Source: Tropicibacter sp. R16_0 (GTDB lineage Bacteria; Pseudomonadota; Alphaproteobacteria; Rhodobacterales; Rhodobacteraceae). Taken from it: a stretch of 64,000 nt of DNA. The DNA is taken from the NCBI RefSeq assembly GCF_017743935.1, contig NZ_JAGHRE010000007.1, positions 124,001-188,000 of the forward strand, read 5' to 3'. The first letter of the stretch is position 1. Each line of letters starts with the position of its first letter. Of the stretch, positions 7,901-30,200 are shown in pieces. Both the position numbers and the translations under genes were made by a program. The notes beneath the pieces were generated by a model. It worked only from the letters and a program-made list of their open reading frames with translations. It was not told the origin of the DNA and made no database searches.

Positions 7901-8101
7901 GGGGGCGCTCCCGCCCGTCGTCGATGCCCCTGGTGGGACATCTCCTCCCGTTGGGCCGAGCCTCGCTGCGCTCGGCGGTTGGCTGATGTGGCAAGACGGC
8001 AGCCCCGATTGAAACCGCGCCGAGCCGAAGGCGAGGCACTCGGCCCAAAGCCGTTAGCGGTACCGACGCAGTCGGGACTGCTCGGGTGCGGGAGCGCCCC
8101 C
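7901..8101 (+). repeat. Dispersed palindromic intergenic repeat, copy A (full length)
   Basis: About 200 bp between the convergent thioesterase and DUF2235 genes. It opens with GGGGGCGCTCCCGCCCG and closes with CGGGTGCGGGAGCGCCCCC, imperfect terminal inverted repeats. Arm 1 (GGGCGGGAG end, with CTCCTCCCGTTGGGCC inside) lies on the left, arm 2 (GCCGTTAGCGG, GACGCAGTCGGGA) on the right. The GC-rich centre contains local hairpins. Copies C, D and E share both arms; B and F share arm 1. Confidence 0.85.
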
Positions 8102-8138
8102 CGAGCCACCGGCGCCAGTGCAAACAATGATAGCTCGT

Positions 8139-9215
8139 TCAATGCGTGGCTGTGGGTTCTGCCATAGGGGCGCGTGTTGCGCCTGGAACGTCTTCTGGCC
8201 TGACCGTTTCGTGCAACCGTTCTGATCTGTCGCGTCCTACGGTACGTGGGCCGCGCAGCAGAAAGATTTTGCCCCATCCCCGCCACGTTCCAACCGATGG
8301 CGCATCCGGATCGGCCGGGAACCGGGCGTGCCAATCAGGCGGCAAAGGAAAGCCATGGGCTTCGGCCTTTTCCAGCATCCACACCAGAGAGACGTTGGCC
8401 AAAGGACGGGCTTGCTCATATTCGCCCAACTGACCCCCGACATCCCCATGACTGCCCCGGAACCAGACCTGCTCGACATGGCCCTTGAACCCGGGCGAGC
8501 ACTGCCAGAGAACCGGCGTGAACACCTGCCGCGTTTCATCCAGGGCCAGCGCGTGATAGCCATGCTGAATGCTGGGGCCCAGTTGATGGTTGTGGAATGC
8601 ATGTCGTGCCTCAGCCCAGCGCCACAAGAGCGGCAACCTCATGCCAAGAGCCTTCACCGAATCCCAGACGCCCACCATCTCGATTGGCGTCTCGTCGTGG
8701 CAAAAAGCCCGCGCAAAGGCCGCGGCATGCGGGCTGCTGGGATTGCACTCATAGTGGCGATAGGCCTGCCGGATGTTGCGCACTGTCGCGTGCTCGGCCT
8801 TGAGCAGCCCGACCATATCGATCACACCAGCCAAGCTCCGCACGCCGTAAGCCCCGCGCGAGTACCCTATCAAGAAAATCCGATCGCCGGGTTTGTAGCG
8901 TGAGGCAAGATATCCGTAAGCCCGTCTGATCTGCCGATTGATCCCACGCCCCATCATGACGTCCAAGGTCGTGCGCCAGCTTTTCCACTGCACCCCGGCT
9001 TCGTAGAACACCGACACCTGCGAGCCCATCTCGCAGGCCAGGCGCAAGAACTGGCCGGCATGCGTTTCACGCCCGGGCTCCAGCGTCGACATGGTGCCGT
9101 CCAGAATGATTACATGCGTTCGCGGTCCGCGATGCGGTGTTTCTGCAGAATGCTCGGACCGCAGTGGCCGTCCAAGCCAACCCAGAAGTTTCTTACTCAG
9201 CCGCGACAGCACCAT
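8139..9215 (-). CDS. DUF2235 domain protein (alpha/beta hydrolase, Tle1-like phospholipase fold)
   Basis: 358 residues. The DUF2235 fold is seen from the N-terminal I-I-L-D-G-T-M (about residues 36-42) and the nucleophile elbow G-Y-S-R-G-A with S119; a later V-W-D-S-V-K-A-L-G motif supplies the acid and F-R-G-S-H-G-D-V-G-G the probable catalytic His. The same fold is used by type VI phospholipase effectors, but here no type VI gene is near, so a housekeeping lipase or esterase is equally possible. The ATG at 9215 has AAGG ahead and overlaps the end of the upstream CoxL-type gene by 23 bases. Confidence 0.85.
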   Translation of the reverse strand: MVLSRLSKKLLGWLGRPLRSEHSAETPHRGPRTHVIILDGTMSTLEPGRETHAGQFLRLACEMGSQVSVFYEAGVQWKSWRTTLDVMMGRGINRQIRRAYGYLASRYKPGDRIFLIGYSRGAYGVRSLAGVIDMVGLLKAEHATVRNIRQAYRHYECNPSSPHAAAFARAFCHDETPIEMVGVWDSVKALGMRLPLLWRWAEARHAFHNHQLGPSIQHGYHALALDETRQVFTPVLWQCSPGFKGHVEQVWFRGSHGDVGGQLGEYEQARPLANVSLVWMLEKAEAHGFPLPPDWHARFPADPDAPSVGTWRGWGKIFLLRGPRTVGRDRSERLHETVRPEDVPGATRAPMAEPTATH

Positions 9216-11490
9216 CCTTAATCATTTCCCATACTTTGAGGGGTGTGAACGGCATGTCCGCCTGACGCACCCCCCGATCCCAGAGCGCGTCCTGCACGGC
9301 GTTTGCCACGGCGGCGAGCGCCCCGACCGTCCCGGCCTCGCCGCAGCCCTTCATCCCCATTGGGTTGGCCGTCGACGGAACCGGTTGCGAGGTAAACTCA
9401 ATCATGGGCACGTCGGCGGCGCGGGGCAAGGCATAGTCCATGAACGTTGCCGTGAGCAGTTGTCCATCTGCATCATGCACAACATGTTCGGTGACCGCCT
9501 GTCCGATGCCCTGGACCACCCCGCCATGCACTTGCCCCTCGGCCAACATGGGGTTGATAAGATTACCGAAATCATCGACCACCGTATAGCGGTCGACAGT
9601 GGTCACCCCGGTGTCCGGGTCGATCACAACTTCGGCAACATGGGCGCCGTTGGGATAGCTGCGACCGGGCAGCTGCGCCCGGGCTTCGTGCCTCAGCAGG
9701 TCGGTCCGACCATCCGCGCGCGCCATCTCGGCCGCCTCAACCAGCGTCGGGGTCAGGTTCGACCCGGGTGCGCGGAATGTCTCGTCGTCGAACATGACGT
9801 CGCTCTCCTGAACCCCCATCTTGTCCGCAAGATAGGGCGTGAATGCGGCGAGGATCACGTCGACCGTTGCCAAGGTGGCATTGGCTTGTGTGGTCACGGA
9901 ACGGGATCCACCCGTTCCCCCGCCTTGCGCGATACGGTCACTGTCGCCTTGCACGACCCGGATCAACTCGGCCGGGATACCCGTCTGATCGGCCAGGAAT
10001 TGAGCATAAACCGTTTCATGCCCCTGCCCGTTCGACTGCGTCCCGACATAAAGGTTGACCGTGCCATCTTCACAGAACTCGACCGTCGCACCTTCGGAAG
10101 GGTCGCCCAAAATACTTTCAATATAGTAACACAGACCCTGGCCCCGCAGCAGGCCTCGCGCCGCATCCGCTGCACGGCGCGCAGCAAAACCTGCCGCCCC
10201 GGCCTGTTCCCCAGCACGCGAAAGGATCATGTCAAACTCACCCACGTCATAGGTCTCACCCGTCGCGGACTTATAGGGAAAGGCATCGGGCTTGATGAAG
10301 TTCTTGCGGCGCAGTTCCCACGGGTCGACGCCCAATTCGCGCGCGGCACGGTCCATGACCCGCTCCAGCACATAGATCGCCTCGGGCCGCCCAGCGCCGC
10401 GATAGGCGTCGACCTGGGTGGTGTTTGTGTAGATCCCTTCGACCTGCAGCCATGTGGTCTGCACGTCATAAACACCCATCAGCACTCGGCTAAACAGATT
10501 GGTCTGAATTGCTTGTGCAAAATGACTGTTGTAGGCGCCCAGATTGCAGCGCGTCTGCACGCGGTAGGCGGTGATCTTGTGATCCGCGTCAAAGGCCAGC
10601 TCGGCCAGCGAGGTCAGGTCGCGGCCATGGTTGTCGGTCAGCATTGCCTCCGTGCGCTCGGACATCCAGCGCACCGGACGCCCCAACACACGCGCGGCAT
10701 GCGCAACTGGCATGTACTCAGGGTACGGCATCGCCTTCATACCGAATCCACCGCCCACGTCTGGCGTGGTGACATGCAGGTTCTCGGGCTGCATCCCCAG
10801 CTTGTCGGCCAGTTGCGCCTTCATGGCCCAAACGCCCTGCCCACCGTATGAGAAGTGCAAATGGTCGCCGTCCCAGGCCGCATGACATCCGCGCGGCTCC
10901 ATCGAATTGGCGATGATCCGGTTGTCATACACATCCAGCGACACGACATGCGCCGCCGCGTCAAAGGCCGCTTGCGTCGCCTCTTCGTCACCCAGCCCCC
11001 AATCAAATGCGCGGTTGTCTGGTGCCTCGGGGTGCAGCTCCGCTCCACCCGGGGCAAGGTCGGTCTTGGCGGGCAAATCTTCGGTGTCCATCCAGATCGC
11101 TTCGATCGCGTCGCGGGCCTGTTCGGGCGTCTCGGCCACAACCATGGCCACGGGCTCACCCACGAAACGCACACGCCCCCGCGCCAACATAGGGCGTTCA
11201 GGTGCTGCGGCCTTGGACCCATCGCGGTTTTGCAGGGTGGTGCCATCCATCGCCACCTTGATCCCCGCTGCCTCCAGATCTTCGACCGTCACGATCAGAT
11301 GCACGCCATCCATCTCGCGCGCAGCGTCCAGATCGAGCGAGGTGATGATCCCATGCGCAACAGGGCTGCGAAAGAACGCGGCATAAAGCGCACCGTCCGG
11401 GGCCACGTCTTCCATGAACCGCCCTTGCCCGGTCAGAAAGCGGACGTCCTCGACCCGTTTGACTGGCTGGCTTTTTCCGAACTTTTCCAT
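9193..11490 (-). CDS. Xanthine dehydrogenase family molybdopterin-binding subunit (form II CoxL type)
   Basis: 765 residues, large subunit of a molybdenum hydroxylase. Molybdopterin cytosine dinucleotide contacts include G-G-G-F-G-M-K (246-252) and the C-terminal G-C-G-E-A-G with the catalytic Glu. The active-site loop reads A-Y-R-G-A-G-R (362-368), the form II signature; true aerobic CO dehydrogenases (form I) carry A-Y-x-C-S-F-R. So the substrate is probably not CO, and an aldehyde, nicotine-like or purine-like substrate is unresolved. No medium (FAD) or small (2Fe-2S) subunit gene adjoins it, which is unusual. AGGGAG precedes the start; the ornithine decarboxylase gene ends 46 bases upstream. 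Confidence 0.9.
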   Translation of the reverse strand: MEKFGKSQPVKRVEDVRFLTGQGRFMEDVAPDGALYAAFFRSPVAHGIITSLDLDAAREMDGVHLIVTVEDLEAAGIKVAMDGTTLQNRDGSKAAAPERPMLARGRVRFVGEPVAMVVAETPEQARDAIEAIWMDTEDLPAKTDLAPGGAELHPEAPDNRAFDWGLGDEEATQAAFDAAAHVVSLDVYDNRIIANSMEPRGCHAAWDGDHLHFSYGGQGVWAMKAQLADKLGMQPENLHVTTPDVGGGFGMKAMPYPEYMPVAHAARVLGRPVRWMSERTEAMLTDNHGRDLTSLAELAFDADHKITAYRVQTRCNLGAYNSHFAQAIQTNLFSRVLMGVYDVQTTWLQVEGIYTNTTQVDAYRGAGRPEAIYVLERVMDRAARELGVDPWELRRKNFIKPDAFPYKSATGETYDVGEFDMILSRAGEQAGAAGFAARRAADAARGLLRGQGLCYYIESILGDPSEGATVEFCEDGTVNLYVGTQSNGQGHETVYAQFLADQTGIPAELIRVVQGDSDRIAQGGGTGGSRSVTTQANATLATVDVILAAFTPYLADKMGVQESDVMFDDETFRAPGSNLTPTLVEAAEMARADGRTDLLRHEARAQLPGRSYPNGAHVAEVVIDPDTGVTTVDRYTVVDDFGNLINPMLAEGQVHGGVVQGIGQAVTEHVVHDADGQLLTATFMDYALPRAADVPMIEFTSQPVPSTANPMGMKGCGEAGTVGALAAVANAVQDALWDRGVRQADMPFTPLKVWEMIKDGAVAAE

Positions 11491-11536
11491 CGCGCGCTCC
11501 CTGCTGGCTCAGAACGCGACGATAGCTCTTGAGGTG

Positions 11537-12679
11537 TCATTGTCCAGAGAAGGAAAGCACCGTTGCCACGTCACGCAGGCCATAGCCGTTGAACATGGTC
11601 GACATGGCGACAGAATAGGCACCCATGCCGGCGATCAGCAGATAGTCGCCGGTTTGTGTGTCGTCCGGCAGAACCAGCCCATCGGGCAGGCGATCCAGGC
11701 TGTCGCAGGTTGGGCCGAAGACAATACGTGCCACCCCCGGGGCCGTGCGTTCAACCCCCTTGTCTGATACCACCCGAACGCGGTCCATCAGGCCCATATC
11801 CCGCAGATCAACAAGACCTCCGTAGATGCCATCGTTGAGAAAGACGATCCGTCCGTCCTGTTTCATGCCCTTGATCCGTGTCGCCAAGACAAAAGCCTCG
11901 GACACCATGGCGCGTCCCGGCTCGCAGATGAGAGCAGGCGCGGCGTTCGCGAACACCCGATCCACCGTCTCGCGGATGGTTTTGAACACGCCTTCCAGAT
12001 CTGGGGCTTGCCCATTTCGATGCGCGGCAAAACCACCACCCACATTCAAGCGCGCCAAGGTGACACCTGCGGCCTGCGCAATGTCGGCGGCGGCTTCGAT
12101 GTAACGTGCCCAGGCGCTTGCATCCTCACATTGCGTACCCGGATGGAAACACAAGGACGGCGACCAGCCGTTCTCCTGAACTCGCCGCAACAGCGCTGCG
12201 GCCTCATCCTTGGTCGCACCAAACTTCTCGCCAAAGTCATAAGCCGCGCCCTCAACCGGCAGGGCAAAGCGCACCGAGATTTCGCAGGACTTGGGTACGG
12301 CCGCCAGCTTGTCCAACTCGGCGGCATCATCCACCGACCAGCTTGCCACCTGATGCGCAATGCCAGAAGCAACCTCGGCCTCGGACCGTACCGGGTTGTT
12401 GTAGTGCAAAACCGCATCCGGCAGCGCCGCGCGCACGGCCTGCATCTCGACCGGAGAGGCGACGTCAAATGTGGTCACACCCGCCGCAACCAGATTGGCC
12501 AGCACCTCGGCCCGATCGTTGGCCTTGACCGCATAGGTCACCAACCCGTCAAAGCCCTGCTGGAATCGCCGCGCCGTGGCCTGCAGCACCGCAGGCGACA
12601 GATACATCACCGGGTGATCGGGGCGAATTCGGCTCAGATGGGTTTCCGGGGTGGCCCAAGGGGTCGAAAGATGCTGCAT
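11537..12679 (-). CDS. Ornithine decarboxylase-like fold-III PLP decarboxylase
   Basis: 380 residues from the ATG at 12679 with GAGG ahead. Alanine-racemase-fold decarboxylase of the eukaryotic-type ODC family. The PLP lysine is K52 in Y-A-V-K-A-N, the glycine-rich phosphate loop is V-G-G-G-F (213-217), E-P-G-R lies at 253-256, and the partner-subunit catalytic cysteine is C325 in G-P-T-C-D-S-L-D. The reaction is ornithine (possibly lysine) to putrescine (or cadaverine) plus CO2, in polyamine synthesis. Divergent from an Lrp-type regulator that is the natural candidate regulator. Confidence 0.9.
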   Translation of the reverse strand: MQHLSTPWATPETHLSRIRPDHPVMYLSPAVLQATARRFQQGFDGLVTYAVKANDRAEVLANLVAAGVTTFDVASPVEMQAVRAALPDAVLHYNNPVRSEAEVASGIAHQVASWSVDDAAELDKLAAVPKSCEISVRFALPVEGAAYDFGEKFGATKDEAAALLRRVQENGWSPSLCFHPGTQCEDASAWARYIEAAADIAQAAGVTLARLNVGGGFAAHRNGQAPDLEGVFKTIRETVDRVFANAAPALICEPGRAMVSEAFVLATRIKGMKQDGRIVFLNDGIYGGLVDLRDMGLMDRVRVVSDKGVERTAPGVARIVFGPTCDSLDRLPDGLVLPDDTQTGDYLLIAGMGAYSVAMSTMFNGYGLRDVATVLSFSGQ

Positions 12680-12683
12680 CGGT

Positions 12684-12711
12684 GCCTCACTGTTTTTTCT
12701 TAAGGTGAGGC
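12684..12711. promoter_or_regulatory. Inverted repeat in the decarboxylase / Lrp intergenic region
   Basis: GCCTCAC at 12684-12690 and GTGAGGC at 12705-12711 form a perfect 7-bp inverted repeat with a T-rich 14-base spacer, directly covering the decarboxylase ribosome-binding region. It could be an operator for the divergent Lrp-type protein or an mRNA hairpin that masks the Shine-Dalgarno GAGG. Function inferred. Confidence 0.4.
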
Positions 12712-12782
12712 AATCAGACGTCGATTTCACGCGGCGTATTGAATAATATGCAGGAAAGATTCGTCATTATGCCGAAAGCGTC

Positions 12783-13220
12783 ATGCAACTTGATGAAATT
12801 GACACCAGACTTCTGTCGCTCTTGGGGGACAATGCCCGTACACCGGTGACCGAATTGGCGCGTCTTCTAGGTCTGGCGCGCACGACGGTTCAGGCCCGGA
12901 TCGAACGGTTGGAAAACACAGGCGTTATTGCGGGATATACCCTGCGTCTGAGCGCTGCCGCACGTCCCCCCTTGCAGGCCACGGTACTGGTCTCGATCGA
13001 GCCACGCACCGGCCCCACGGTTCTCAGCCGGCTGCGCAACCTGCCGGGTGTCGAGGTCGTGCACACCACATCAGGACGGTTCGATCTGCTGGTGCAGGTC
13101 AGCGCCGCGACTACGGCAGAGTTGGACGAGACCCTCGACCGGATCGGCGAAGCGCGCGGCGTCTTGTCGTCCGAGAGCCTGATTCATCTCTCCACCAAAC
13201 TGGACCGCGGCGGGCGCTAA
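12783..13220 (+). CDS. Lrp/AsnC family transcriptional regulator
   Basis: 145 residues. N-terminal helix-turn-helix (residues 1-50: L-D-E-I-D-T-R-L-L...R-T-T-V-Q-A-R-I-E-R-L) followed by the RAM ligand-binding domain (65-140) with the conserved L-P-G-V-E-V-V-H-T-T-S-G-R-F-D-L-L-V segment. These proteins sense amino acids as octamers. Its divergent position suggests control of the decarboxylase gene and of itself. Amino acid specificity cannot be read from the sequence. Confidence 0.92.
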   Translation: MQLDEIDTRLLSLLGDNARTPVTELARLLGLARTTVQARIERLENTGVIAGYTLRLSAAARPPLQATVLVSIEPRTGPTVLSRLRNLPGVEVVHTTSGRFDLLVQVSAATTAELDETLDRIGEARGVLSSESLIHLSTKLDRGGR

Positions 13221-13268
13221 GCCCGGTCAGCACTCACACTCCCGATCATTGCAAGCCCCTGCGGGTGG

Positions 13269-13350
13269 CGGCCCGCCGCGCAACGCGCGGCGCCCGGCCC
13301 AACGGGAGGAGGGCATCTTTGATGCCTGATCGACGGGCGGGAGCACTCCG
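13269..13350 (-). repeat. Dispersed intergenic repeat, copy B (arm 1 only)
   Basis: Between convergent Lrp and LysR genes. Contains GGCCCAACGGGAGGAGGGC, the small hairpin GGCATCTTTGATGCC and CGACGGGCGGGAG, as in arm 1 of the full copies, plus one inner GC-rich hairpin. Arm 2 with GCCGTTAGCGG is missing, so this is a half copy in reverse orientation relative to copy A. Confidence 0.8.
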
Positions 13351-13388
13351 GGGGCTGGCGCAGCGACGAACCCGGTGCGCAACCTGCC

Positions 13389-14270
13389 CTAAGTCGGTGC
13401 AAGATACTCCAACAGCCATTTGCGAAACACACGGGCGGCTGGACGCAACGCGGATGTGTCGGCGTAAACAAGATGATACCCCTCCTGCCCTGCCACCTCG
13501 AACCCCGGCAGACACGGCACAAGGCCACACATCGTGGTAATGGTATCGCTGGCAGGCGCTCTTGCCAGACAGATCCCTCCCCCTGCCGCCGCCATGGTGG
13601 CCGCCACGATCGTGTTGTCGACAAAGGTATGGCGCGCGTTGCCTTGTGGCAGTTTCAGCGCTTCGAACACATAGGGCCAACCCGCCCGATGCGAGGCGAC
13701 CTCGATCAGCACGTGATCCAGCAGATCCTGTGGCGCAGCGATCCTGTCCGCCACCTCTGGCAATGCCATAGGGTAAAGCCGCTCTTGCAGCAAAGGGTCA
13801 TGGGTCGCGCCAAACAGCGTCGGGTTGCCAAAGACGATCTGCAGGTCGGTGAACTGACTGGCGCTTTCGCTGGCCTGGTTGCTGGTCCCCAACATCACCC
13901 GCACATCGGGATGCGCCTGGTTGAAACGCGGAATGCCTGCCGACAGAAACCCATGCGCAAAGAGCATGTTGGATTGCACAAACACCCGTTGCTGCCGCGT
14001 TTCACCGAACAGGCCGGTTGTCGCCGTTTCCAGCATCAACAGCGATTGCTGCACCGACGGAAGATAACCTCGCCCCGCTTCGGTCAAGGTCACCGAATGG
14101 GGGTGTCGCACAAAAAGACGTGCCCCCAATTGCGTCTCTAACGCCTTGACTTGCTGGCTGACAGCGGCCGCAGACATGTTCAACTGCTGCGCCGCCCGCG
14201 CGAAACTTTCGGTGCGCGCAGCTGCTTCGAACACGCGCAGCCAATTCAAGGAAGGAATACGAGACGCCAT
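13389..14270 (-). CDS. LysR family transcriptional regulator (GcvA-like)
   Basis: 293 residues from the ATG at 14270; a TTG six codons earlier is open but unlikely. The N-terminal winged helix (L-N-W-L-R-V-F-E-A-A-A-R-T-E-S-F-A-R-A-A-Q-Q-L...A-V-S-Q-Q-V-K-A-L-E) is of the GcvA/AmpR type. The effector domain has V-A-A-T-M-A-A-A-G-G-G-I-C-L-A-R. It is transcribed away from the dioxygenase / HD-oxygenase genes, and a near-ideal LysR box lies 8 bases upstream of its start, so it very likely controls that operon and itself. The inducer is unknown. Confidence 0.9.
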   Translation of the reverse strand: MASRIPSLNWLRVFEAAARTESFARAAQQLNMSAAAVSQQVKALETQLGARLFVRHPHSVTLTEAGRGYLPSVQQSLLMLETATTGLFGETRQQRVFVQSNMLFAHGFLSAGIPRFNQAHPDVRVMLGTSNQASESASQFTDLQIVFGNPTLFGATHDPLLQERLYPMALPEVADRIAAPQDLLDHVLIEVASHRAGWPYVFEALKLPQGNARHTFVDNTIVAATMAAAGGGICLARAPASDTITTMCGLVPCLPGFEVAGQEGYHLVYADTSALRPAARVFRKWLLEYLAPT

Positions 14271-14277
14271 GAGATGC

Positions 14278-14298
14278 AGGCTAAGCAAAACTTAGCCT
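14278..14298. promoter_or_regulatory. LysR-type operator (T-N11-A) in the LysR / PhyH intergenic region
   Basis: AGGCTAAG at 14278-14285 and CTTAGCCT at 14291-14298 form a perfect 8-bp inverted repeat with a CAAAA spacer. Inside it T14282 and A14294 give the T-N11-A core typical of LysR recognition sites. It lies 8 bases from the regulator start and 82 bases ahead of the dioxygenase start. Confidence 0.75.
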
Positions 14299-14379
14299 AA
14301 GCTGCAAGACTTCGCGTTCTGAGATCTTTGCCCTCTCGTCTAGCGTGAAGGAACACAGCCGCAGCCCGCAGGAGCCACC

Positions 14380-15279: not shown

Positions 15280-15291
15280 GAAGGACCGGCT

Positions 15292-15915: not shown

Positions 15916-16032
15916 AACCCAAAGCGGTCAAAAAAGCAGAGAAATAGCGGATTTTCGGCCCATTTGGGCCGGAAACACTGCGTTTTTGCACGATCCGTGG
16001 ATTTAGCATGTGTACTGCGCTATGTCCCCGAT

Positions 16033-16764: not shown

Positions 16765-16798
16765 CACGTGCTCTGACGGACGGTCCCGCTTGGGCTGC

Positions 16799-16981
16799 GG
16801 GGGCGCTCCCGCGCCCGCACAATCCCGACTTCGTCGGCACTGTTGGCGGACTTGGGCCGAGCGCCTCGCCTGCGGCTCGGCGCGGTCGCGTCCAGCTGAA
16901 CGCTCCCGCCGCGCGTAGCGCGGCCCGGCCCAACGGGAGGAGGGCATCTTTGATGCACGAACGACGGGCGGGAGTGCCCCC
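16799..16981 (-). repeat. Dispersed intergenic repeat, copy C (full length, inverted relative to A)
   Basis: About 183 bp in the 336-bp gap between the dienelactone hydrolase gene and valS; the rest of that gap (16982-17100) shows no gene and no clear signal. Arm 2 is on the left (GGGGGCGCTCCCGCGCCCG, then a CCGACTTCGTCGG hairpin) and arm 1 on the right (CAACGGGAGGAGGGCATC, then CGACGGGCGGGAGTGCCCCC). This is the only copy between co-directional genes. Confidence 0.85.
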
Positions 16982-17100
16982 GCTCAGCAGGGCGCAAATC
17001 GCGGGTCTCGCACGGTTCCCATCGACAAACCCTTCCCCTTACCGCCCCCATTCGCTATTGCAGGCGCTGACCCCGAATTCGATGACGCAGGATACATCTG

Positions 17101-21908: not shown

Positions 21909-21916
21909 AGTCGTTT

Positions 21917-22136
21917 GGGGGCACTCCTGCCCGTCGCGCGTGCATCAAAGATGCCCTTCTCCCGTTGGCCAAAAGAAATCATGCGCTTGGGTCACTAGGA
22001 ACCCACTCCCCAAAACACCGCAAACTACACCCCTACACCAACCGCAGGCGGGACTGCGCCGCGCAAGGCGCGGCGCTACGCCCAAGGCCGTTAGCGGTGC
22101 CGACGCAGTCGGGATCGCTCGGGTGCGGGAGCCCCT
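21917..22136 (+). repeat. Dispersed intergenic repeat, copy D (full length)
   Basis: About 220 bp between the convergent DUF1992 and enoyl-CoA hydratase genes. Arm 1 left: GGGGGCACTCCTGCCCGTCG, GCATCAAAGATGC, CTCCCGTTGGCC. Arm 2 right: AGGCCGTTAGCGGTGCCGAC, then TCGGGTGCGGGAGCCCC. The central 90 bases differ from the other copies and are less GC-rich, so the arms are conserved and the centre is not. Confidence 0.85.
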
Positions 22137-22157
22137 CGCCCGTTGACACGGATCAAA

Positions 22158-22940: not shown

Positions 22941-23019
22941 GGCTTGGCCTCTCCTCATTCACTGTTGCGGGCACTGTGCCGTGAAGAGAGCCCCCGCGCC
23001 ACCAAAACGTCGGGGCAGT

Positions 23020-24090
23020 CTAGGGCATGTCCGCAACAGGCATGCGCCCAAAGCCGGGCGAATCCAACGTCATGACATAGAACTGATCACCGACAACCCG
23101 CGCGCCGGTGGTTATGCCCAACCGACCCGAGGGATCTTGCAACGTGCGCAGGATCTTTCCGTCGGGATCGAACTGAATGACCATTCCGCGTTCGATCGGC
23201 GCCGGGCGCACGGCCGACCCCAGCCGCCAGATCACCTTGCGCAGGAACGGATAGGGCATCAGCGCCTCAGCCGGGACCCGTGGGCTGGCAAAAGCCAGCC
23301 AAAAGGTGCCATCGTCCTGACGTTCCAGGTTGTCGGGGTAGCCCGGCAGATTGTCCAGGAACACCTCCTGCTCCCCCGCCTTGGGGCCGGTCAACCACAA
23401 CCGGTGCACCCTTGCGCGGCCGGTTTCATTGATCAGCAGGAAATCCTCGTCTGGCGAGAGCGCCACCCCGTTGGTGTAGACAAAACCGGTCGCTATTTTT
23501 TCAACCGTGCCATCCGGGGTGCGCCGCGCGACATATCCGGCGTCGGACTGCTCCCAAATCGCTAGAACCGAGGTTGGTTTGGTCCCGCCCATGGTTTCCG
23601 GGTCGAACCGGTCCGTCGAATTCGAGAAATAGATCGTGCCATCGCGACCCACGTCCAACTGGTTGGCGTAGATCACCGGTGCGCCATCAATCTCGGACAC
23701 CACGCTTTCCAGCGTGCCCGGCCCAGTCCAACGCATGATCCCGCGAAAGCTGTCGGCGATGTAAAGCGCACCATCCGGCCCGGCCTTGAGCCCCAACGGG
23801 CGCCCTTCAAGGCGGTCAACTTCGACGGGCGTGTCGCCCTCGATCTGATAGAGCACGCCGGACAGGCTGGTGGTGAAAATACGACCGTCGGGCAGCACCG
23901 CCAGATCCTCGGGGCCGATTTCTCCATCCGGCAAGGTGACGATCTGTGCCTTGTCGAGCGCAGCGTTTTCGGCAAAGTCCCCCACAAAGCCGCGATCTTC
24001 GGGCGGGCGATAGGCGATCGGATCAACTGGAACGGGCCAGAACAGCAGATAGCCAAGCCCGGCCAGAAGCAAAATCAACAGAATGCGCAT
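23020..24090 (-). CDS. SMP-30/strictosidine-synthase-like beta-propeller protein
   Basis: 356 residues. A single hydrophobic anchor or signal at residues 3-20, then a six-bladed propeller with repeated D-G-x-I/L-Y/F turns, for example L-P-D-G-R-I-F-T-T, G-P-D-G-A-L-Y-I-A-D and G-R-D-G-T-I-Y-F-S-N. The Y-T-N-G-V-A-L-S-P-D block and the following P-G-Y-P-D-N-L are typical of the strictosidine synthase / adipocyte plasma-membrane-associated protein group. Such proteins are lactonases or esterases when characterised. Probably faces the periplasm. Its substrate is unknown. Confidence 0.85.
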   Translation of the reverse strand: MRILLILLLAGLGYLLFWPVPVDPIAYRPPEDRGFVGDFAENAALDKAQIVTLPDGEIGPEDLAVLPDGRIFTTSLSGVLYQIEGDTPVEVDRLEGRPLGLKAGPDGALYIADSFRGIMRWTGPGTLESVVSEIDGAPVIYANQLDVGRDGTIYFSNSTDRFDPETMGGTKPTSVLAIWEQSDAGYVARRTPDGTVEKIATGFVYTNGVALSPDEDFLLINETGRARVHRLWLTGPKAGEQEVFLDNLPGYPDNLERQDDGTFWLAFASPRVPAEALMPYPFLRKVIWRLGSAVRPAPIERGMVIQFDPDGKILRTLQDPSGRLGITTGARVVGDQFYVMTLDSPGFGRMPVADMP

Positions 24091-24334
24091 GAATGTCCCC
24101 GCCGCTACAAATCTCGGGCAAACCCTGCAACCTTGGGGTGATCAGCGCAACCCGCTGACGGGATCAACCTCGGAATTACTGCACCAAATGGTTCAAAAAC
24201 CTCGGCAAAGACCCGCTGAGAGGATTGTCGCAATATGTAAAAAGTGAATACTGCCCTCTTGCGTGGCAGACGACCCATCTGCATATGCGGTGAAATCAGA
24301 GTTAAACAATAAGATTTCCTCGGAGGGACATTGA

Positions 24335-25234
24335 ATGGGTTTTGCCATACTCGCGATCTTTGTGCTGTGCTCGATCTACGTACAGACCCGAGGTAAGCTG
24401 CGTCACGAATTGATCCGCCGCCGGATCACGGACCACGCCAACCTTTTTGCGCCACTGAACTGCTTGTTCTACGCCTTTTCCAAGGTGCCGACGACGCCCT
24501 ACATCGACCCGGCCCTGTTTCCCGAACTGAAGCCGCTGCAAGACAATTGGGAAACCATCCGGGATGAGGCGGTGCAGCTCAACAGCACCGGCGCGATCAA
24601 GGCGTCCGATGATCTGGACGACATCGGCTTCAACTCGTTCTTCAAAACCGGCTGGACGCGATTTTACCTGAAATGGTACGGCTCGTCGCTGGGGTCTGCC
24701 AAGGACAACTGCCCGGTGACCACGCAGATGGTGGAGCAGATCCCCTCGATCAAAGGTGCGATGTTCGCCAGCCTGCCACCCGGCGCCACATTGGTGCGCC
24801 ACCGTGATCCCTTTGCCGGATCGCTGCGGTATCACATGGGGCTTACGACGCCAAACGACGACGGCTGCTATATCAATGTTGATGGCGAGAACTACTCATG
24901 GCGCGACGGCGAGGTGGTCATGTTTGACGAGACCTACATTCACCACGCAGAAAACACGACCGATGCAAACCGCATCGTGCTGTTCCTGGACATCAAGCGT
25001 CCGGTGACCTTTGCGCCCATCAACTGGATCAACACCGCGTTTTCGAACATCGTCATGTCAGCCTCGGCGACCAAGAACGTGCCGGGCGACAAAGTGGGTG
25101 CCGTCAACAAGGCCTTTGCCTGGATCTACAAGGTGCGCGCCTTCGGGAAACGCATCAAGGCGTGGAACAGGACCGTCTATTACGCCATCCAGTACGGTAT
25201 CTATGCCGGGATCATCTATCTGATCTTCTTCTAA
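24335..25234 (+). CDS. Aspartyl/asparaginyl beta-hydroxylase domain protein (LpxO-like)
   Basis: 299 residues with an N-terminal hydrophobic segment (2-17), a hydrophobic C-terminus, and a hydroxylase domain between. Active-site motif H-R-D-P gives H156 and D158, R165 follows in S-L-R-Y-H, H203/H204 lie in T-Y-I-H-H-A and R213 in N-R-I-V-L. Length, the terminal membrane segments and F-Y-L-K-W-Y-G-x-x-L match LpxO, which 2-hydroxylates a lipid A acyl chain at the inner membrane with Fe(II) and 2-oxoglutarate. Lipid A modification is therefore the favoured role. CGGAGGG precedes the start. Confidence 0.82.
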   Translation: MGFAILAIFVLCSIYVQTRGKLRHELIRRRITDHANLFAPLNCLFYAFSKVPTTPYIDPALFPELKPLQDNWETIRDEAVQLNSTGAIKASDDLDDIGFNSFFKTGWTRFYLKWYGSSLGSAKDNCPVTTQMVEQIPSIKGAMFASLPPGATLVRHRDPFAGSLRYHMGLTTPNDDGCYINVDGENYSWRDGEVVMFDETYIHHAENTTDANRIVLFLDIKRPVTFAPINWINTAFSNIVMSASATKNVPGDKVGAVNKAFAWIYKVRAFGKRIKAWNRTVYYAIQYGIYAGIIYLIFF

Positions 25235-25301
25235 GTCGATCGAGACCCTTTGACAGTGCGCGAGGCTTGCGAGAGCCCGCGCGCTGCGGTTATCTGCGGG
25301 C

Positions 25302-26426
25302 ATGACACAGCTCCGCTTTACCCCCCTCGCCCAATCCCTGCCTGCCACTGTTCCCTTTGTTGGACCCGAGACACAGGAGCGCCAGCGCGGCGCGCCTTTT
25401 GACGCGCGCCTTGGGGCGAACGAGAACGTCTTTGGCCCCTCTCCCCGCGCAATCGAAGCGATGCAAAAGGCGGCTGGTGACATCTGGATGTACGGTGATC
25501 CGGAAAACCACGATCTGCGGCACGCTTTGGCCGCACACCACGGAGTAACCCCGGAAAACATCGTTGTCGGCGAAGGGATCGACGGGCTGTTGGGCTATCT
25601 GGTGCGGCTTTTCATAGGTCCCGGCGATGCGGTGGTGACTTCGGAAGGCGCCTATCCCACATTCAACTATCACGTCGCGGGGTTCGGCGGGGTGCTCCAC
25701 AAGGTGCCGTATTCCGGTGATCACGAGGATCCGGCGACACTTTTTGCCAAAGCCGCTGAAGTCGACGCCAAACTGGTGTACCTCGCCAACCCGGACAATC
25801 CGATGGGCACCTGGCATTCGGGCGCCGAGATCGTCGCTGCGATGGACGCCCTGCCCGAAGGGTGTCTTTTGGTTCTGGACGAGGCCTATGTCGAATGTGC
25901 CCCTGACGGGACCGCGGCACCGGTCGACTCGGGCGACACACGCCTGATCCGGATGCGCACATTTTCAAAGGCTTACGGTATGGCAGGCGCCCGGGTGGGC
26001 TACGCCCTTGGCGCGCCCGAGCTGATTTCGGCCTTCAACAAGGTGCGCAATCATTTCGGCATGAACCGGGCGGCGCAAGCTGGCGCACTTGCTGCTTTGG
26101 GTGATGCGGATTGGTTGGCACATGTGCAGGCCGAAATCAGCGATGCGCGCGCGCGCATCGATGCAATTGCGCAAGACAACGGGCTGAGTACGGTTCCCTC
26201 TGCCACCAATTTTGTCGCCATCGACTGCGGCCAGGACGGGGTGTTTGCCAAGGCGGTTCTGGACGCGCTGATCGCGGAGGGGCTTTTTGTGCGCATGCCG
26301 TTTGCGGCGCCCCAGAACCGGTGCATCCGCATCAGCTGTGGCCGCCCGCAAGACCTCGACGCCTTCGCCGCCGCCCTGCCTGGCGCGCTACAGACCGCGC
26401 AAGCCCAGACCAACACCCAAGTGTGA
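25302..26426 (+). CDS. Histidinol-phosphate aminotransferase-like class I/II aminotransferase
   Basis: 374 residues. Fold-type I PLP enzyme. L-A-N-P-D-N-P-M-G-T contains the cofactor Asn, D193 in L-D-E-A-Y-V pairs with the pyridine nitrogen, the Schiff-base lysine is K223 in F-S-K-A-Y-G, and R-I-S-C-G-R near the end binds the substrate carboxylate. It resembles HisC, but is not in a his operon, and roseobacters have HisC paralogues. Substrate therefore uncertain: histidinol phosphate, aromatic amino acid or another. The small membrane-protein gene follows 49 bases later. Confidence 0.85.
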   Translation: MTQLRFTPLAQSLPATVPFVGPETQERQRGAPFDARLGANENVFGPSPRAIEAMQKAAGDIWMYGDPENHDLRHALAAHHGVTPENIVVGEGIDGLLGYLVRLFIGPGDAVVTSEGAYPTFNYHVAGFGGVLHKVPYSGDHEDPATLFAKAAEVDAKLVYLANPDNPMGTWHSGAEIVAAMDALPEGCLLVLDEAYVECAPDGTAAPVDSGDTRLIRMRTFSKAYGMAGARVGYALGAPELISAFNKVRNHFGMNRAAQAGALAALGDADWLAHVQAEISDARARIDAIAQDNGLSTVPSATNFVAIDCGQDGVFAKAVLDALIAEGLFVRMPFAAPQNRCIRISCGRPQDLDAFAAALPGALQTAQAQTNTQV

Positions 26427-26475
26427 CCTGACACATCCCGCCCCCGCGCTATACTGCTGTGTGGAGGAGAGACCC

Positions 26476-26655
26476 GTGCGAGGCAAGCCACCGGGCCGCG
26501 CGCCCGATTACACAACAGCGGCACTGACCATGTTGGGTGTAAACCTGATGTGGATGCTCTGCGCGATCTGGGCGCTTTTTGGCTTTGGCGTCGCGCTGAT
26601 TTTGGCCGCAGTCCTGAATGCCGGCATCACCCGCCTGGGGCAGCGTACGGGATAA
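26476..26655 (+). CDS. Small membrane protein of unknown function
   Basis: 59 residues, GTG start with a perfect GGAGG six bases upstream. A short basic N-terminus (R-G-K-P-P-G-R-A-P-D-Y) is followed by a hydrophobic helix of about 30 residues (about 18-50: M-L-G-V-N-L-M-W-M-L-C-A-I-W...) and a basic tail R-L-G-Q-R-T-G. One or two membrane segments are possible. No family recognised. Strong ribosome-binding site and position after the aminotransferase gene suggest a real gene. Repeat copy E starts 8 bases after the stop. Confidence 0.6.
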   Translation: MRGKPPGRAPDYTTAALTMLGVNLMWMLCAIWALFGFGVALILAAVLNAGITRLGQRTG

Positions 26656-26663
26656 CGGTCAAC

Positions 26664-26862
26664 GGGGTGCTCCCGCGCCCGAGCGATCCTGACTGCGTCA
26701 GCACCGCCAGCGGCCTTGGGCCGAGCGCCGGGCAAAGCCCGGCGCGGTTCCGTTTGGGGTCGTCGTTCCGCCACAAGCGCCGAGCGCAGCGGGGCGCCTT
26801 AAAATTCGGAGCCCAACGGGAGGAGTGCATCTTTGATGCACGACCGACGGGCGGGAGCGCAC
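26664..26862 (-). repeat. Dispersed intergenic repeat, copy E (full length, inverted relative to A)
   Basis: About 199 bp filling the gap between two convergent genes, 8 bases from one stop and 6 from the other. Arm 2 left: GGGGTGCTCCCGCGCCCGAG and GACTGCGTCAGCACCGCC. Arm 1 right: CCCAACGGGAGGAGTGCATC, then CGACGGGCGGGAGCGC. The centre has its own hairpin, GCGCCGGGCAAAGCCCGGCGC. Confidence 0.85.
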
Positions 26863-26868
26863 CGAGCC

Positions 26869-28083
26869 TCAAGCACCAACGCTTGCAATCACTGCAGCCG
26901 CCGCATCCAACGCGCCTTTGCCACGGGGGACATCCAATGCCGCCAAACCGGCTTCGACGCCGCCCAGCATGCCCATGACCATCTGACCATTCAGATGCCC
27001 CATGTGACCCAAGCGAAAGAAGTCATCCCGTCTTGGATCACCCGGCTCTGCCATGCCCAGACCGATGCCCAGGGTCAGCCCCAGATTGCTTTCCACCCAG
27101 TTGCGCAATGCCGTGCCGCGTCCTTGATCCAGGCGCAGCGACGTGACGGCACGCGAACGGTGCTCGGGGTCACTCACATTCAACGCCAGCGCCCCGCCTT
27201 CGGCCCAGACCTCACAGGCGGCCCAGATCGCGCGCGCCAAGGTCTCGTGCCTTGCCCAGACGTTGTCCATCCCCTCGCCATGGATCATGTCCAAGGCCTG
27301 GCGCAGACCATAGAGGTGATGCGTAGGCGCGGTGCCGTTGAAATACTGATAGAACTCCTCCGGATGCGCACGCGGCGTCCAATCCCAATACCCCGACACG
27401 CGCGGCATCGATGCCCGCTTGACCGCCGCCTTTTCGTTGAAGAACACAAACGCCGTACCGGGCGGGACCATCAACCCTTTCTGGCTTCCGGTGACCGCAA
27501 CATCCACGCCCCAGGCGTCCATCTCGAACCGATCACAGCCCATCGAGGCGATGCAATCAGCCATCAGCAATGCGGGGTGATTCAGCTCGTCCAACAGCGC
27601 GCGCAGTGCGGGCACGTTGTTGCGGACCGAGGTCGAGGTGTCCACATGCACCGCCAGCACGGCCTTGATCTGATGGGCCGTGTCAGCGCGCAAAGCCTCG
27701 GCGATTTGCTCCATGTCCCACGGGCTGGATTTGCCGAAATCGAGGATCTGCGTCTCGATCCCCAGGCCGTCGGCCATGAGCGCCCAGCCATGGGCAAACC
27801 GCCCTGTCGCAGGGACTAGAACCCGCTCTCCGGGTGCAATGGTGTTGGCCAGGGCTGCCTCCCACACGCCGTGACCGTTGGCGATGTAGATGGCGACATT
27901 GTGCTCGGTTCGGGCCACGCGCCGCAAATCAGCCGTCAGCCCCGGCATCATGTCGATCAGCTCACCCTCGTAAATGTTGGGCGCGGCGCGGTGCATAGCC
28001 TGCAAAACCGCATCGGGCATCACCGAGGGACCTGGAATGGCAAGGTAGTGGCGGCCCGAAACGGGCGTGGAATTCGTCGTCAT
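26869..28083 (-). CDS. Class V aminotransferase (alanine/serine--glyoxylate type)
   Basis: 404 residues from the ATG at 28083. Class V PLP aminotransferase; the Schiff-base lysine is K202 in V-T-G-S-Q-K-G-L-M-V-P-P-G, and A-N-G-H-G-V-W-E-A-A-L-A-N near residue 68 binds the cofactor phosphate. The segment V-H-V-D-T-S-T-S-V-R and N-G-T-A-P-T-H-H-L-Y are typical of the alanine-glyoxylate / serine-glyoxylate / phosphoserine-like group. Probable role: transamination to glyoxylate or pyruvate. No serine-cycle or photorespiration genes adjoin it, so the exact donor is not settled. Confidence 0.88.
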   Translation of the reverse strand: MTTNSTPVSGRHYLAIPGPSVMPDAVLQAMHRAAPNIYEGELIDMMPGLTADLRRVARTEHNVAIYIANGHGVWEAALANTIAPGERVLVPATGRFAHGWALMADGLGIETQILDFGKSSPWDMEQIAEALRADTAHQIKAVLAVHVDTSTSVRNNVPALRALLDELNHPALLMADCIASMGCDRFEMDAWGVDVAVTGSQKGLMVPPGTAFVFFNEKAAVKRASMPRVSGYWDWTPRAHPEEFYQYFNGTAPTHHLYGLRQALDMIHGEGMDNVWARHETLARAIWAACEVWAEGGALALNVSDPEHRSRAVTSLRLDQGRGTALRNWVESNLGLTLGIGLGMAEPGDPRRDDFFRLGHMGHLNGQMVMGMLGGVEAGLAALDVPRGKGALDAAAAVIASVGA

Positions 28084-28254
28084 CTGAAAGCCTGTTCTCT
28101 CTGCGTCCGCCACCCTAGCGGACGCGCGCGCGGCGTCAATTCACCAAACGGCAAGCGCGCTGCAAACTTGCGCCTTTGCTGCGACGTGCTTAAATGGGCG
28201 CGTCATGACCCAAACCCTGTCGTCATCCCTGCTCCCCCAAATGAAAGCAACGCC

Positions 28255-30111
28255 ATGAGTGTAAAACACAAATCAAGCCGTGAACTCATGGGCTGGCTCT
28301 GGCGCGGCTACCTCTACAAGCATCTGCCGCTCTTGGGCATTGCAATGGTGTTCATGCTGCTCGAAGGCAGCATGGTCGGTGTGCTCAGTTACATGATGCA
28401 GCCGATGTTCGACGACGTCTTCGTCAAGGGCAATACGGATGCGCTGAAATGGGTGAGCCTGGCGTTCCTGATCATCTTTGCGATCCGAGGCGGCGCCGGC
28501 GTGATTCAAAAGGTGCTGTTGACGCGGATCTCGCAAGAGACGGCAGCGCATCTGCGATTGGATCTGCTGAACCGATTGATCCGTCAGGACACCTCGTTTC
28601 ACCAGACCCACCCGCCCGGTTTTCTGATCCAGCGGGTGCAGATGGACGTGAGCGCCGTGAACCATGTCTGGCAGGTGATCATCACCGGCGCCGGGCGTGA
28701 TGCGGTGTCTCTGGTGGTTCTGATCGGCGTGGCCATCAACGTCGATTGGGTCTGGACTGCGGTCATGCTGATCGGCGTTCCCATTCTGCTTTTGCCGGTG
28801 GCCGCCGCGCAGCGCTATGTGCGCAAGAAGGCGGCTCAGGCGCGCGATCTGGGGGCAGAACTGTCCACGCGGTTGGACGAGATCTTTCACGGGATTGTCC
28901 CGATCAAGCTGAACAATCTGGAAAAGTACCAAGTCAACCGGTTTGACGGCCATATGAGCGGCTTTGTCCGCTCGGAGGTGCGCGCCAGTTTCGGCACCGC
29001 GTCGATCACTGGACTGGTCGATGTCATGGCCGGGGTCGGCTTTATGGGCGTGCTTTTGTACGGCGGATCCGAGATCATCTCGGGCGAAAAGACCGTGGGG
29101 GAGTTCATGAGCTTCTTCACCGCCATTGGCCTGGCCTTTGACCCGATGCGGCGACTGGCCTCGGTCAGCGGCACCTGGCAAGTGGCCGCCGCTGCCCTCG
29201 ACCGTCTCAAGGATCTGATGGACGAGCCAATCAAGCTGCTCTCGCCCGAAAAACCCGTCGCAGCCCCGTCTGGCCGTCCCGAGATCGCGCTGAAAGACGT
29301 GCAGCTGAACTATGGCGAGGCGGCGGTGCTGCGCGGGCTGACCCTGAGGGCCGAGTCTGGCAAGACCACAGCGCTTGTGGGCGCATCCGGCGCGGGCAAA
29401 TCGACGATCTTCAACCTGCTGACCCGCCTGGTCGACCCCCAAGCCGGATCGGTTCAGGTTGGTGACGTCGAGGTGCGGGATATGTCGCTCGACAAACTGC
29501 GCGATCTTTATTCGGTGGTCACGCAAGAGGCGTTGCTGTTCGACGAAACCCTGCGCGAGAACATCCTGCTGGGGCGGACGGACGTGAGCGATGCGCAGCT
29601 ACAGGAGGTGTTGGACGCGGCCCATGTGTCAGATTTCCTGCCCAAGCTGGACAACGGTCTTGATACCCTGGTTGGGCCGCGCGGATCAGCCTTGTCGGGC
29701 GGGCAGCGTCAGCGGGTTGTGATTGCCCGCGCCTTGCTGCGGGATACCCCGGTGCTGCTGCTGGACGAGGCCACCAGCGCATTGGATGCGCAATCTGAAA
29801 AAGTGGTGCAGGAGGCGCTTGATCGGCTGTCTGGGGGGCGCACGACCATCGTCATCGCGCACCGGTTGTCCACCATTCGCAACGCCGACAAGATCGTGGT
29901 GATGGAACGGGGTGAAGTCGTGGATGAGGGCACGCATGACGAGCTCTTGGCGCGTGGCGGCATCTATGCCGATTTGTACCGGTTGCAGTTCCAGGACGGC
30001 AAAACGGTGATTGACCCCGAAGGAATGGCAGCCCTGACACCCCTCGCAAAAAAGGTCGATCCACCCCAGGCTGGATGGGTTCGGCGCATATTTGATCGGC
30101 TGATGGGGTAA
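28255..30111 (+). CDS. ABC transporter, fused permease and ATPase (MsbA-like exporter)
   Basis: 618 residues from the ATG at 28255. N-terminal six-helix exporter domain (about 15-310), then the ATPase domain. Walker A is G-A-S-G-A-G-K-S-T at about 375, signature A-L-S-G-G-Q-R-Q-R near 480, Walker B V-L-L-L-D-E-A-T-S-A-L-D near 500 and the switch His in I-V-I-A-H-R-L. The Shine-Dalgarno is weak. Homodimeric exporters of this type flip lipid A, phospholipids or drugs outward. MsbA is a candidate, but the substrate cannot be proved by sequence. Repeat copy F starts 4 bases after the stop. Confidence 0.92.
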   Translation: MSVKHKSSRELMGWLWRGYLYKHLPLLGIAMVFMLLEGSMVGVLSYMMQPMFDDVFVKGNTDALKWVSLAFLIIFAIRGGAGVIQKVLLTRISQETAAHLRLDLLNRLIRQDTSFHQTHPPGFLIQRVQMDVSAVNHVWQVIITGAGRDAVSLVVLIGVAINVDWVWTAVMLIGVPILLLPVAAAQRYVRKKAAQARDLGAELSTRLDEIFHGIVPIKLNNLEKYQVNRFDGHMSGFVRSEVRASFGTASITGLVDVMAGVGFMGVLLYGGSEIISGEKTVGEFMSFFTAIGLAFDPMRRLASVSGTWQVAAAALDRLKDLMDEPIKLLSPEKPVAAPSGRPEIALKDVQLNYGEAAVLRGLTLRAESGKTTALVGASGAGKSTIFNLLTRLVDPQAGSVQVGDVEVRDMSLDKLRDLYSVVTQEALLFDETLRENILLGRTDVSDAQLQEVLDAAHVSDFLPKLDNGLDTLVGPRGSALSGGQRQRVVIARALLRDTPVLLLDEATSALDAQSEKVVQEALDRLSGGRTTIVIAHRLSTIRNADKIVVMERGEVVDEGTHDELLARGGIYADLYRLQFQDGKTVIDPEGMAALTPLAKKVDPPQAGWVRRIFDRLMG

Positions 30112-30115
30112 GACC

Positions 30116-30200
30116 GGGGGCACTCCCGCCCGTCGTCGATGCCCCTTGCGGGACACCTCCTCCCGTTGGGCCGGGCGCGCCTCGCCTTCGGCGCGGCGCG
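30116..30200 (+). repeat. Dispersed intergenic repeat, copy F (arm 1 only)
   Basis: Between the convergent ABC exporter and eda genes. Begins GGGGGCACTCCCGCCCGTCG, continues GATGCCCC and CTCCTCCCGTTGGGCC, and ends with a GCGCC/GGCGC hairpin. Its ATGCCCC..GGGACA.CTCCTCC core is nearly identical to copy A, but arm 2 is absent. Confidence 0.8.

What the first reader, a model, noticed from the sequence alone, without database searches (positions are those of the whole stretch)
7901..30200. A family of about 200-bp palindromic intergenic repeats, six copies in 22 kb
Copies A (7901-8101), C (16799-16981), D (21917-22136) and E (26664-26862) share two arms: arm 1 with GGGCGGGAGnGCCCCC at its end plus AACGGGAGGAG and a GATGC hairpin, arm 2 with GCCGTTAGCGG, GACGCAGTCGGGA and CGGGTGCGGGAG. 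B and F have arm 1 only. Terminal sequences are imperfect inverted repeats, like a MITE or a REP-like element; no transposase is in the window. The density suggests hundreds of copies genome-wide. I know of no named family with this sequence, but cannot search.
Basis: seen in the sequence. Interest (0 to 1): 0.72.

Follow-up and report, generated by a model that had tools for sequence, protein, structure and literature searches.

The report
Paired hairpin repeats at gene ends
A marine bacterium carries over a hundred copies of a hairpin-forming DNA repeat placed mostly just behind genes; the copies mostly stay put between related species and keep their fold while their letters change, so they look more like a working part of messenger-RNA ends than like jumping junk DNA.

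Summary
In detail: six copies in the window, 118 exact arm-1 cores in the 5.24-Mb genome (reversed-pattern control 0). Boundaries are sharp. The family is patchy in Rhodobacteraceae (exact pattern in 30 of 295 genomes; covariance model in 20 of 149) and was in 0 of 285 sampled genomes of other families. The MITE reading fails: no target-site duplication, no covariation between the two ends, positions mostly shared between species. Each arm is two boxes around a hairpin whose sequence is almost free but whose pairing covaries strongly. The arms are probably distant homologues on opposite strands; in each, wobble pairs lie on its own centre-to-outside strand (G.T:A.C 134:16 and 95:2), as for a single-stranded, RNA-like structure. 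Copies sit behind stop codons, mostly between convergent genes (166 of 265). At orthologous loci the boxes are 97.8% identical against 69% for flanks. Best reading: a REP-like head-to-head dimer, closest to CGTC-tagged REPs but failing part of their definition, kept as a two-directional 3'-end RNA structure. Function is inferred. Against it: ordinary terminators are not clearly replaced, and single arms in tandem sites often face the wrong way.

The parts
7899..7957 (-). Copy A, arm 1 (centre-to-outside strand is minus)
   Evidence: R1 hit 71.8 bits, E 4e-13
8042..8103 (+). Copy A, arm 2
   Evidence: R1 hit E 0.10, weak alone; inverted repeat with copy C
13296..13352 (+). Copy B, arm 1; followed toward the centre only by a GC-rich hairpin
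   Evidence: R1 E 1.1e-10; sequence
16927..16983 (+). Copy C, arm 1
   Evidence: R1 E 5.7e-11
16797..16858 (-). Copy C, arm 2
   Evidence: R1 E 0.064
21915..21970 (-). Copy D, arm 1 (boxes partly decayed)
   Evidence: R1 E 1.1e-5
22079..22140 (+). Copy D, arm 2
   Evidence: R1 E 0.64; 22065-22135 is 87% identical to 8028-8098 of copy A
26810..26866 (+). Copy E, arm 1
   Evidence: R1 E 1.4e-9
26661..26722 (-). Copy E, arm 2
   Evidence: R1 E 0.077
30114..30172 (-). Copy F, arm 1; its hit begins two bases after the plus-strand gene ending at 30111; followed only by a GC-rich hairpin
   Evidence: R1 E 1.2e-12; gene call

Best explanation
The repeat is a REP-like head-to-head dimer (some copies have only one arm) that works at the 3' ends of genes as an RNA structure. 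Each arm, read from the centre outward, is: a GC-rich central hairpin, GCCCAACGGGAG, a hairpin of almost free sequence, CGACGGGCGGGAG, and perhaps a weak terminal hairpin. Because the arms lie on opposite strands, a two-armed copy between convergent genes would give each of the two mRNAs one correctly oriented arm at its 3' end. I think it protects or defines the 3' end, or hinders transcripts from running into the opposite gene, probably by offering the two boxes to a protein or nuclease. Shown: anatomy, covariation, strand-specific wobble, 3'-end placement, and conservation of the boxes at mostly fixed loci. Inferred: that it is transcribed, the partner, and the effect on the mRNA. It was spread once, by an unknown process; now copies mostly stay in place, and the hairpin cassette is occasionally replaced by another.
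For: Covariation of the inner hairpin in 109 arms: 243 cells with both sides changed against 104.9 +- 9.4 shuffled, 0 of 500. G.T:A.C on the centre-to-outside strand 134:16 for 252 distinct arm-1 hairpins and 95:2 for 90 arm-2 hairpins; letter-shuffled arm-1 control 52:64 (not corrected for relatedness of copies). Placement of 265 distinct copies: 166 convergent, 88 tandem, 9 divergent, 2 unclear; in 1.4 Mb of the genome 30 of 114 convergent, 21 of 509 tandem and 1 of 184 divergent intergenic regions carry it, and no arm-1 core lies in a called gene. Median distance from the stop codon of a gene facing arm 1 is 14.5-28 bp by type. Orthologous sites: boxes 758/775 identical against flanks 813/1178 in the two less biased subsets; of 34 changed stem pairs with pairing in at least one species in 25 orthologous hairpins, 26 keep pairing, 22 of them through a G.T.
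Against: T-tract terminators are not significantly rarer with the element: 15/30 against 46/84 convergent regions, p 0.68; regions of 60 bases or more 15/30 against 40/61, p 0.18. A four-genome sample of orthologous stretches had suggested depletion, 10/31 against 27/57, both directions 1/31 against 16/57. Single-armed copies in tandem sites prefer the orientation in which the upstream gene reads the wrong strand (25 against 10), while two-armed copies prefer arm 1 in sense (29 against 12). The family was not found in most genera of the bacterial family, so it is not a general necessity. Many arm-1 loops are GNYA rather than the RNA-typical GNRA. No transcript data were available. Strand-biased C-to-T mutation could also raise G.T over A.C.
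Confidence: 0.45

Rival explanations
1. A selfish REP-like repeat whose mobilising enzyme has been lost or is unknown; it lies behind genes only because insertions elsewhere are harmful, and it does nothing for the host.
For: Patchy distribution, 1 to 111 copies in the 30 positive genomes of a family sample; modular subtypes sharing arm 1; avoidance of divergent regions and genes; hairpin cassettes replaced at the same locus in 7 of 40 orthologous pairs by my reading; CGTC REPs also lack a dedicated transposase (PMC3733652, abstract and passages).
Against: A dead repeat should decay like its flanks, but the boxes are 97.8% identical while flanks are 69%; most positions, and all orientations seen, are shared between species. 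Gene conversion alone should homogenise the hairpins too, which are 76-89% identical in those subsets.
Confidence: 0.33
2. A DNA-level element: single-stranded DNA hairpins formed in replication or recombination, or a site for a chromosome-organising protein.
For: Frequent loops C(GNA)G and C(GNNA)G are, from recall, especially stable DNA mini-hairpin loops; the third loop base shows no clear purine preference as RNA GNRA loops would.
Against: A duplex-binding site needs no hairpin covariation, and a cruciform would treat G.T and A.C alike; the observed asymmetry is extreme in both arms. No covariation between the two ends. Placement follows the ends of genes.
Confidence: 0.15
3. A miniature inverted-repeat transposon (MITE) moved by a DDE or Y1 transposase.
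For: Sharp ends and CTCCCGC...GCGGGAG terminal inverted repeats.
Against: No target-site duplication, no covariation of the ends, single-armed copies common (109 of 265 by my patterns), no Y1 transposase in the genus, mostly fixed positions. DDE transposases were not searched.
Confidence: 0.04

Closest known systems
CGTC-tagged REP superfamily (Di Nocera et al. 2013, PMC3733652; I saw the abstract, passages and sections 6, 14 and 15)
   Same: Mostly alphaproteobacterial, intergenic, inverted pairs with tags outside (HH dimers), heterodimers with structured spacers, convergent or unidirectional sites close to stop codons, no dedicated transposase known, proposed to act as RNA. Arm 1 holds CCCGTCG beside its hairpin.
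   Different: Arm model is 58 positions and the element about 200 bp (REPs 20-40 bp); about 25 conserved box bases; hairpin sequence nearly free; the AT start of the stem and the CCA tail are missing; arm 2 has no CGTC tag in the copies I read.
GTAG-tagged REPs / REPINs with RAYT transposases
   Same: Inverted hairpin pairs at 3' ends of genes.
   Different: No GTAG tag in the boxes; no Y1 transposase in 4 of 4 genomes of the genus.
CIR repeats of Caulobacter and Brucella (Chen and Shapiro 2003, not held; known here through passages of PMC2229807)
   Same: About 110-bp intergenic alphaproteobacterial repeats with two inverted-repeat arms and a linker.
   Different: CIRs carry GANTC methylation sites; here GANTC is depleted, 8 sites in 105 two-armed elements against 54 after letter shuffling.
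HRC-8-4 and SAM/SAH motifs of Rhodobacterales (PMC8632094, PMC2864571; passages)
   Same: Structured RNA candidates of the same order.
   Different: Each sits mainly beside one particular gene set; this family sits beside many genes in over 100 copies. Sequences were not compared, apart from the Rfam scans.

Membership tests
CGTC-tagged REP | Unpaired CGTC tag next to the hairpin | tested here: inconclusive
   CCCGTCG in arm 1 (selected by pattern); the three bases after CCCGTC are GTC, so that by my reading a CGTC abuts the stem, in 129 of 253 distinct arm-1 hairpins; none seen in arm 2
CGTC-tagged REP | 8-9 bp stem starting with AT pairs, 4-5 nt loop | tested here: not met
   Only 2 perfect hairpins of that form in 1.4 Mb of the genome, one of them apparently a copy of this family. 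Loop length by itself is 4-5 nt in 142 of 238 arm-1 hairpins and 3 nt in 88
CGTC-tagged REP | CCA tail | tested here: not met
   The hairpin is followed by CTCC or similar, then CGTTGGGC
CGTC-tagged REP | Dimers with tags outside (HH), convergent or unidirectional 3'-end placement | tested here: met
CGTC-tagged REP | No dedicated transposase | tested here: inconclusive
   No Y1 transposase; other classes not searched
GTAG REP / REPIN | RAYT (Y1) transposase in the genome | tested here: not met
   PF01797: 0 of 4 genus genomes; 5 of 14 control genomes positive
MITE | Target-site duplication | tested here: not met
   No offset and length above chance in 81 copies; the top scores rest on single matches
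MITE | Terminal inverted repeats that correspond to each other | tested here: inconclusive
   CTCCCGC/GCGGGAG shared by pattern choice, but the bases outside do not covary
CIR | Conserved GANTC sites | tested here: not met
   8 of 105 elements have one; 54 sites expected after letter shuffling
RIME (rhizobia) | Sequence similarity to RIME1/RIME2 | not tested
   No RIME sequence at hand
Any Rfam family | Covariance-model match at gathering score | tested here: not met
   0 in the window; one weak hit (sR22, E 0.42, 17 bits, gathering 40) at copy A, none up to E 1 over copies B and C

The most novel reading that the evidence does not exclude
A family-wide RNA module recognised by a dedicated, still unknown protein: two conserved boxes presented by an interchangeable hairpin, mounted in inverted pairs so that both strands of a convergent gene pair end in the same signal. 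The hairpin cassette is exchanged between copies while boxes and loci stay fixed, which would be a new way for a repeat family to be kept by selection.
Probability: 0.25. Interest if true: 0.75.

Novelty: new variant of a known kind. Interest (0 to 1): 0.52.

Why it matters
Whether REP-type repeats are parasites or working parts of bacterial genomes is an old open question. Here related species share most loci examined, the boxes outlast their flanks, and the fold is kept with a strand bias that says which strand matters. That makes the question testable arm by arm in harmless marine bacteria.

Tried and rejected
MITE: no duplication, no end-to-end covariation. RAYT/Y1: absent from the genus. 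Whole element folding as one cruciform: contradicted by the lack of end covariation (the local pairings tried there gave z 0 except one at 2.1, mostly because one side never varies). Substitute for intrinsic terminators: suggested by 10/31 against 27/57 in four orthologous stretches (no p computed), not confirmed in 1.4 Mb of one genome. Anti-Shine-Dalgarno (CUCCUCCC) RNAs: considered because arm 1 on its other strand reads CTCCTCCC; the first CTC is not kept across genera, and no Rfam family of that kind matched, so I left it. Tandem G.A or kink-turn reading of GGAG/CGAC: possible, but those columns do not vary, so untestable here. RNAalifold on the raw alignment found only the invariant stem; I then named the hairpin columns by hand. 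A clean empty site was not obtained: sites without the element (3 of 51; locus A in G001 and D in G003) have flanks too diverged, and one of the three (L363) has a G000 interval of full length and may hold a decayed copy.

Limits: exact patterns select for exact boxes, so the invariant columns of A1 say nothing. Of the 51 orthologous sites, 39 came from loci fetched because they match the element (22 by arm 2, 11 by the arm-1 box, 6 by BLAST with copy A); the other 12 lie on long stretches, some of which I chose after seeing where copies lie. In the two more biased subsets boxes were 147/150 and 225/225, flanks 195/228 and 254/342. Genes were called by my own codon-usage script trained on the window and applied to other genera too. 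Copies per genome are lower bounds since only 37-40 candidates are scored. A1 used 109 of 129 arms selected for diversity from 238; the rest were dropped for length, for an empty string, or because one arm per locus was taken. In some searches and 69 sites scored absent or with a G000 interval over 700 bases were dropped before the identity counts. In one search one measure (pairs with a change on both sides, 8) does not separate the structure from shuffles. Plasmid and phage collections were searched with copy A alone, viral contigs with the exact two-box pattern: no match. A first context count was replaced.
Full report
What is there. The six copies exist at the stated places. The window is G000:C35:124001-188000 of a 5.24-Mb, 37-contig genome. 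The arm-1 core occurs 118 times in the genome with no match of the reversed control; a strict arm-2 pattern 48 times, control 0. The two-box pattern gives 111, 85, 90 and 70 copies in the four genomes of the genus and is found in 30 of 295 genomes of the family, two of them of the window's genus. In a class-wide sample of 289 it is found only in the window's own genome; the sample held three other members of the family, negative, and 285 genomes of other families, negative. A covariance model finds it in 20 of 149 family genomes, again two of them of the window's genus, under stricter filters that lose weak matches.

Anatomy. Arm 1, read from the centre outward, is GCCCAACGGGAG, a hairpin, CGACGGGCGGGAG; toward the centre follows a GC-rich hairpin in the copies I read. 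It is joined to arm 2 (GGCCCAA..., a hairpin usually with a C(GNA)G loop...CGGGYGCGGGAG), or to a long hairpin plus CCGTCCGCAGGACG...GGCC...GGCC (type II), or to nothing more: 127 two-armed, 29 type II and 109 single copies among 265 (class by my own patterns, so some singles may hold an unrecognised second arm). The arm-1 model R1, built from 109 arms, ranks the four arm 2s of the window directly after the six arm 1s, full length and mirrored, at E 0.064-0.64. Each value is weak alone; that the four next hits are the four arm 2s makes common descent of the arms likely. The element stops about 8 bases outside CTCCCGC and GCGGGAG.

Structure. The inner hairpin is nearly free in sequence. In 109 arms, 243 cells changed on both sides keep a standard pair, against 104.9 +- 9.4 in shuffles, 0 of 500 reaching it; the covariation score is 0.308 against 0.141, and sliding the partner by 1 to 3 columns lowers paired cells, double-change cells, pair types and covariation score. 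The count of pairs with any double change, 8, is the same in shuffles and tells nothing. The stem GCCC/GGGC never varies, which is by pattern choice. On the centre-to-outside strand the stems show G.T 134 and A.C 16 for arm 1 (252 distinct hairpins; 98 with more G.T, 9 with more A.C, 143 ties) and 95 against 2 for arm 2 (90 hairpins; 70, 0, 20); arm-1 letters shuffled give 52 against 64; arm 2 was not shuffled. My scoring treated both mismatches alike; copies are related, so the counts are not independent. So each arm behaves as a single-stranded structure on its own strand, and the two arms use opposite strands. The two ends of 81 two-armed copies do not covary with each other, so the 'terminal inverted repeat' is better seen as two separate arm ends.

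Place. In the window five of six copies lie between convergent genes and C between tandem genes. In 1.4 Mb of the genome 30 of 114 convergent, 14 of 264 and 7 of 245 tandem, and 1 of 184 divergent regions longer than 20 bases carry it, and no arm-1 core lies in a called gene. Among 265 distinct copies from the loci in hand: 166 convergent, 45 and 43 tandem, 9 divergent, 2 unclear; where a gene's stop codon faces arm 1 it lies a median of 28 (two-armed, n 94), 14.5 (type II, n 22) and 27 (single, n 93) bases away. In tandem sites two-armed copies favour arm 1 in sense (29:12), but single copies the reverse (25:10), which speaks against a simple sense-RNA rule.

History. Of 68 copies taken from G001 and G002, 51 had a comparable G000 site in hand: 40 carry the element with exact boxes in the same orientation, 8 a decayed or other arm by a looser pattern, 3 none found; none was inverted. 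Because 39 of the 51 G000 sites came from loci fetched for matching the element, the cleaner figure is the 12 on long stretches: 9 exact, 1 decayed, 2 not found. In the long-stretch and the arm-2-fetched subsets boxes are 225/225 and 533/550 identical, outer flanks 271/342 and 542/836. In 7 of 40 exact pairs the hairpin is a different one altogether (my reading), six of them in the more distant G001, and at one locus G003 holds what I read as a type-II remnant where G000 and G001 hold type I. In 25 orthologous hairpins 26 of 34 changed stem pairs stay paired, 22 through a G.T and 4 by double change, and 8 are paired in one species only. The variable centre of type I is only 55.5% (G001) and 59.5% (G002) identical in the alignments. 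So boxes and fold are kept, positions mostly stay, hairpins are sometimes replaced. Whole-element conversion does not explain this well; selection on the boxes, perhaps with short-tract exchange, does.

Mobility. No target-site duplication, no Y1 transposase in 4 of 4 genomes while 5 of 14 control genomes ring; no match of the exact pattern in viral contigs or of copy A in plasmids or phages. DDE and other classes were not searched.

Function. Intrinsic terminators are not clearly replaced: 15/30 against 46/84 convergent regions have one (p 0.68), 15/30 against 40/61 at 60 bases or more (p 0.18); the earlier hint of 10/31 against 27/57 in orthologous stretches did not hold. What remains is a two-directional 3'-end structure: protection, 3'-end definition or a brake on run-in transcription. 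This is inference from place, strand asymmetry and constraint; no expression data were seen.

Known kinds. The nearest is the CGTC-tagged REP superfamily, which shares alphaproteobacterial hosts, outward tags, structured spacers, 3'-end placement and lack of a dedicated transposase (PMC3733652, abstract, passages and sections 6, 14, 15). Size, stem start, tail and arm 2 do not fit, so I do not file it as a member; it works like one. Its text names none of Rhodobacter, Ruegeria, Silicibacter, Roseobacter, Paracoccus, Dinoroseobacter, Jannaschia or Phaeobacter, but says families occur in all alphaproteobacterial orders, and its Figure 2 was not held, so a Rhodobacterales entry there cannot be excluded. 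CIR repeats carry GANTC (PMC2229807, passages), which is depleted here. Nothing with this sequence was found in nine searches of an open-licence library without figures; most of those papers I saw only as listings, with passages of PMC4809877, PMC2229807, PMC2267715, PMC2864571 and PMC8632094.

Noticed in passing
window 5204-5262: A 28-nt, 96% complementary inverted repeat with a 3-nt gap between the convergent genes ending at 5183 and 5271; not this family by eye.
   Followed up: no
two-armed elements in the loci in hand (105 distinct): GANTC, the CcrM methylation site of alphaproteobacteria, is strongly depleted: 8 sites against 54 expected after letter shuffling.
   Followed up: partly
G003:C2 at the locus of window copy B: The same convergent gap holds a different hairpin element with an end CTCCCGCCCCCG and what looks like a decayed arm 1 on the other side, as if one element type had replaced another.
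   Followed up: no
L132, L134: Single arms followed by CCTCCGGCGGGAGTATTTGG, which looks like a short terminator and shares the GGCGGGAG motif; CCTCCGGCGGGAGTATTTG does not occur in 1.4 Mb of the window's genome.
   Followed up: partly
L131 (G008:C1 near 557800): A run of some 45 C close to a copy of the element, possibly an assembly artefact.
   Followed up: no
L133 / G127:C6:1927278-1927629: Two arm-1 copies in inverted orientation, outer ends outward, about 260 bases apart, like a wide homodimer.
   Followed up: no
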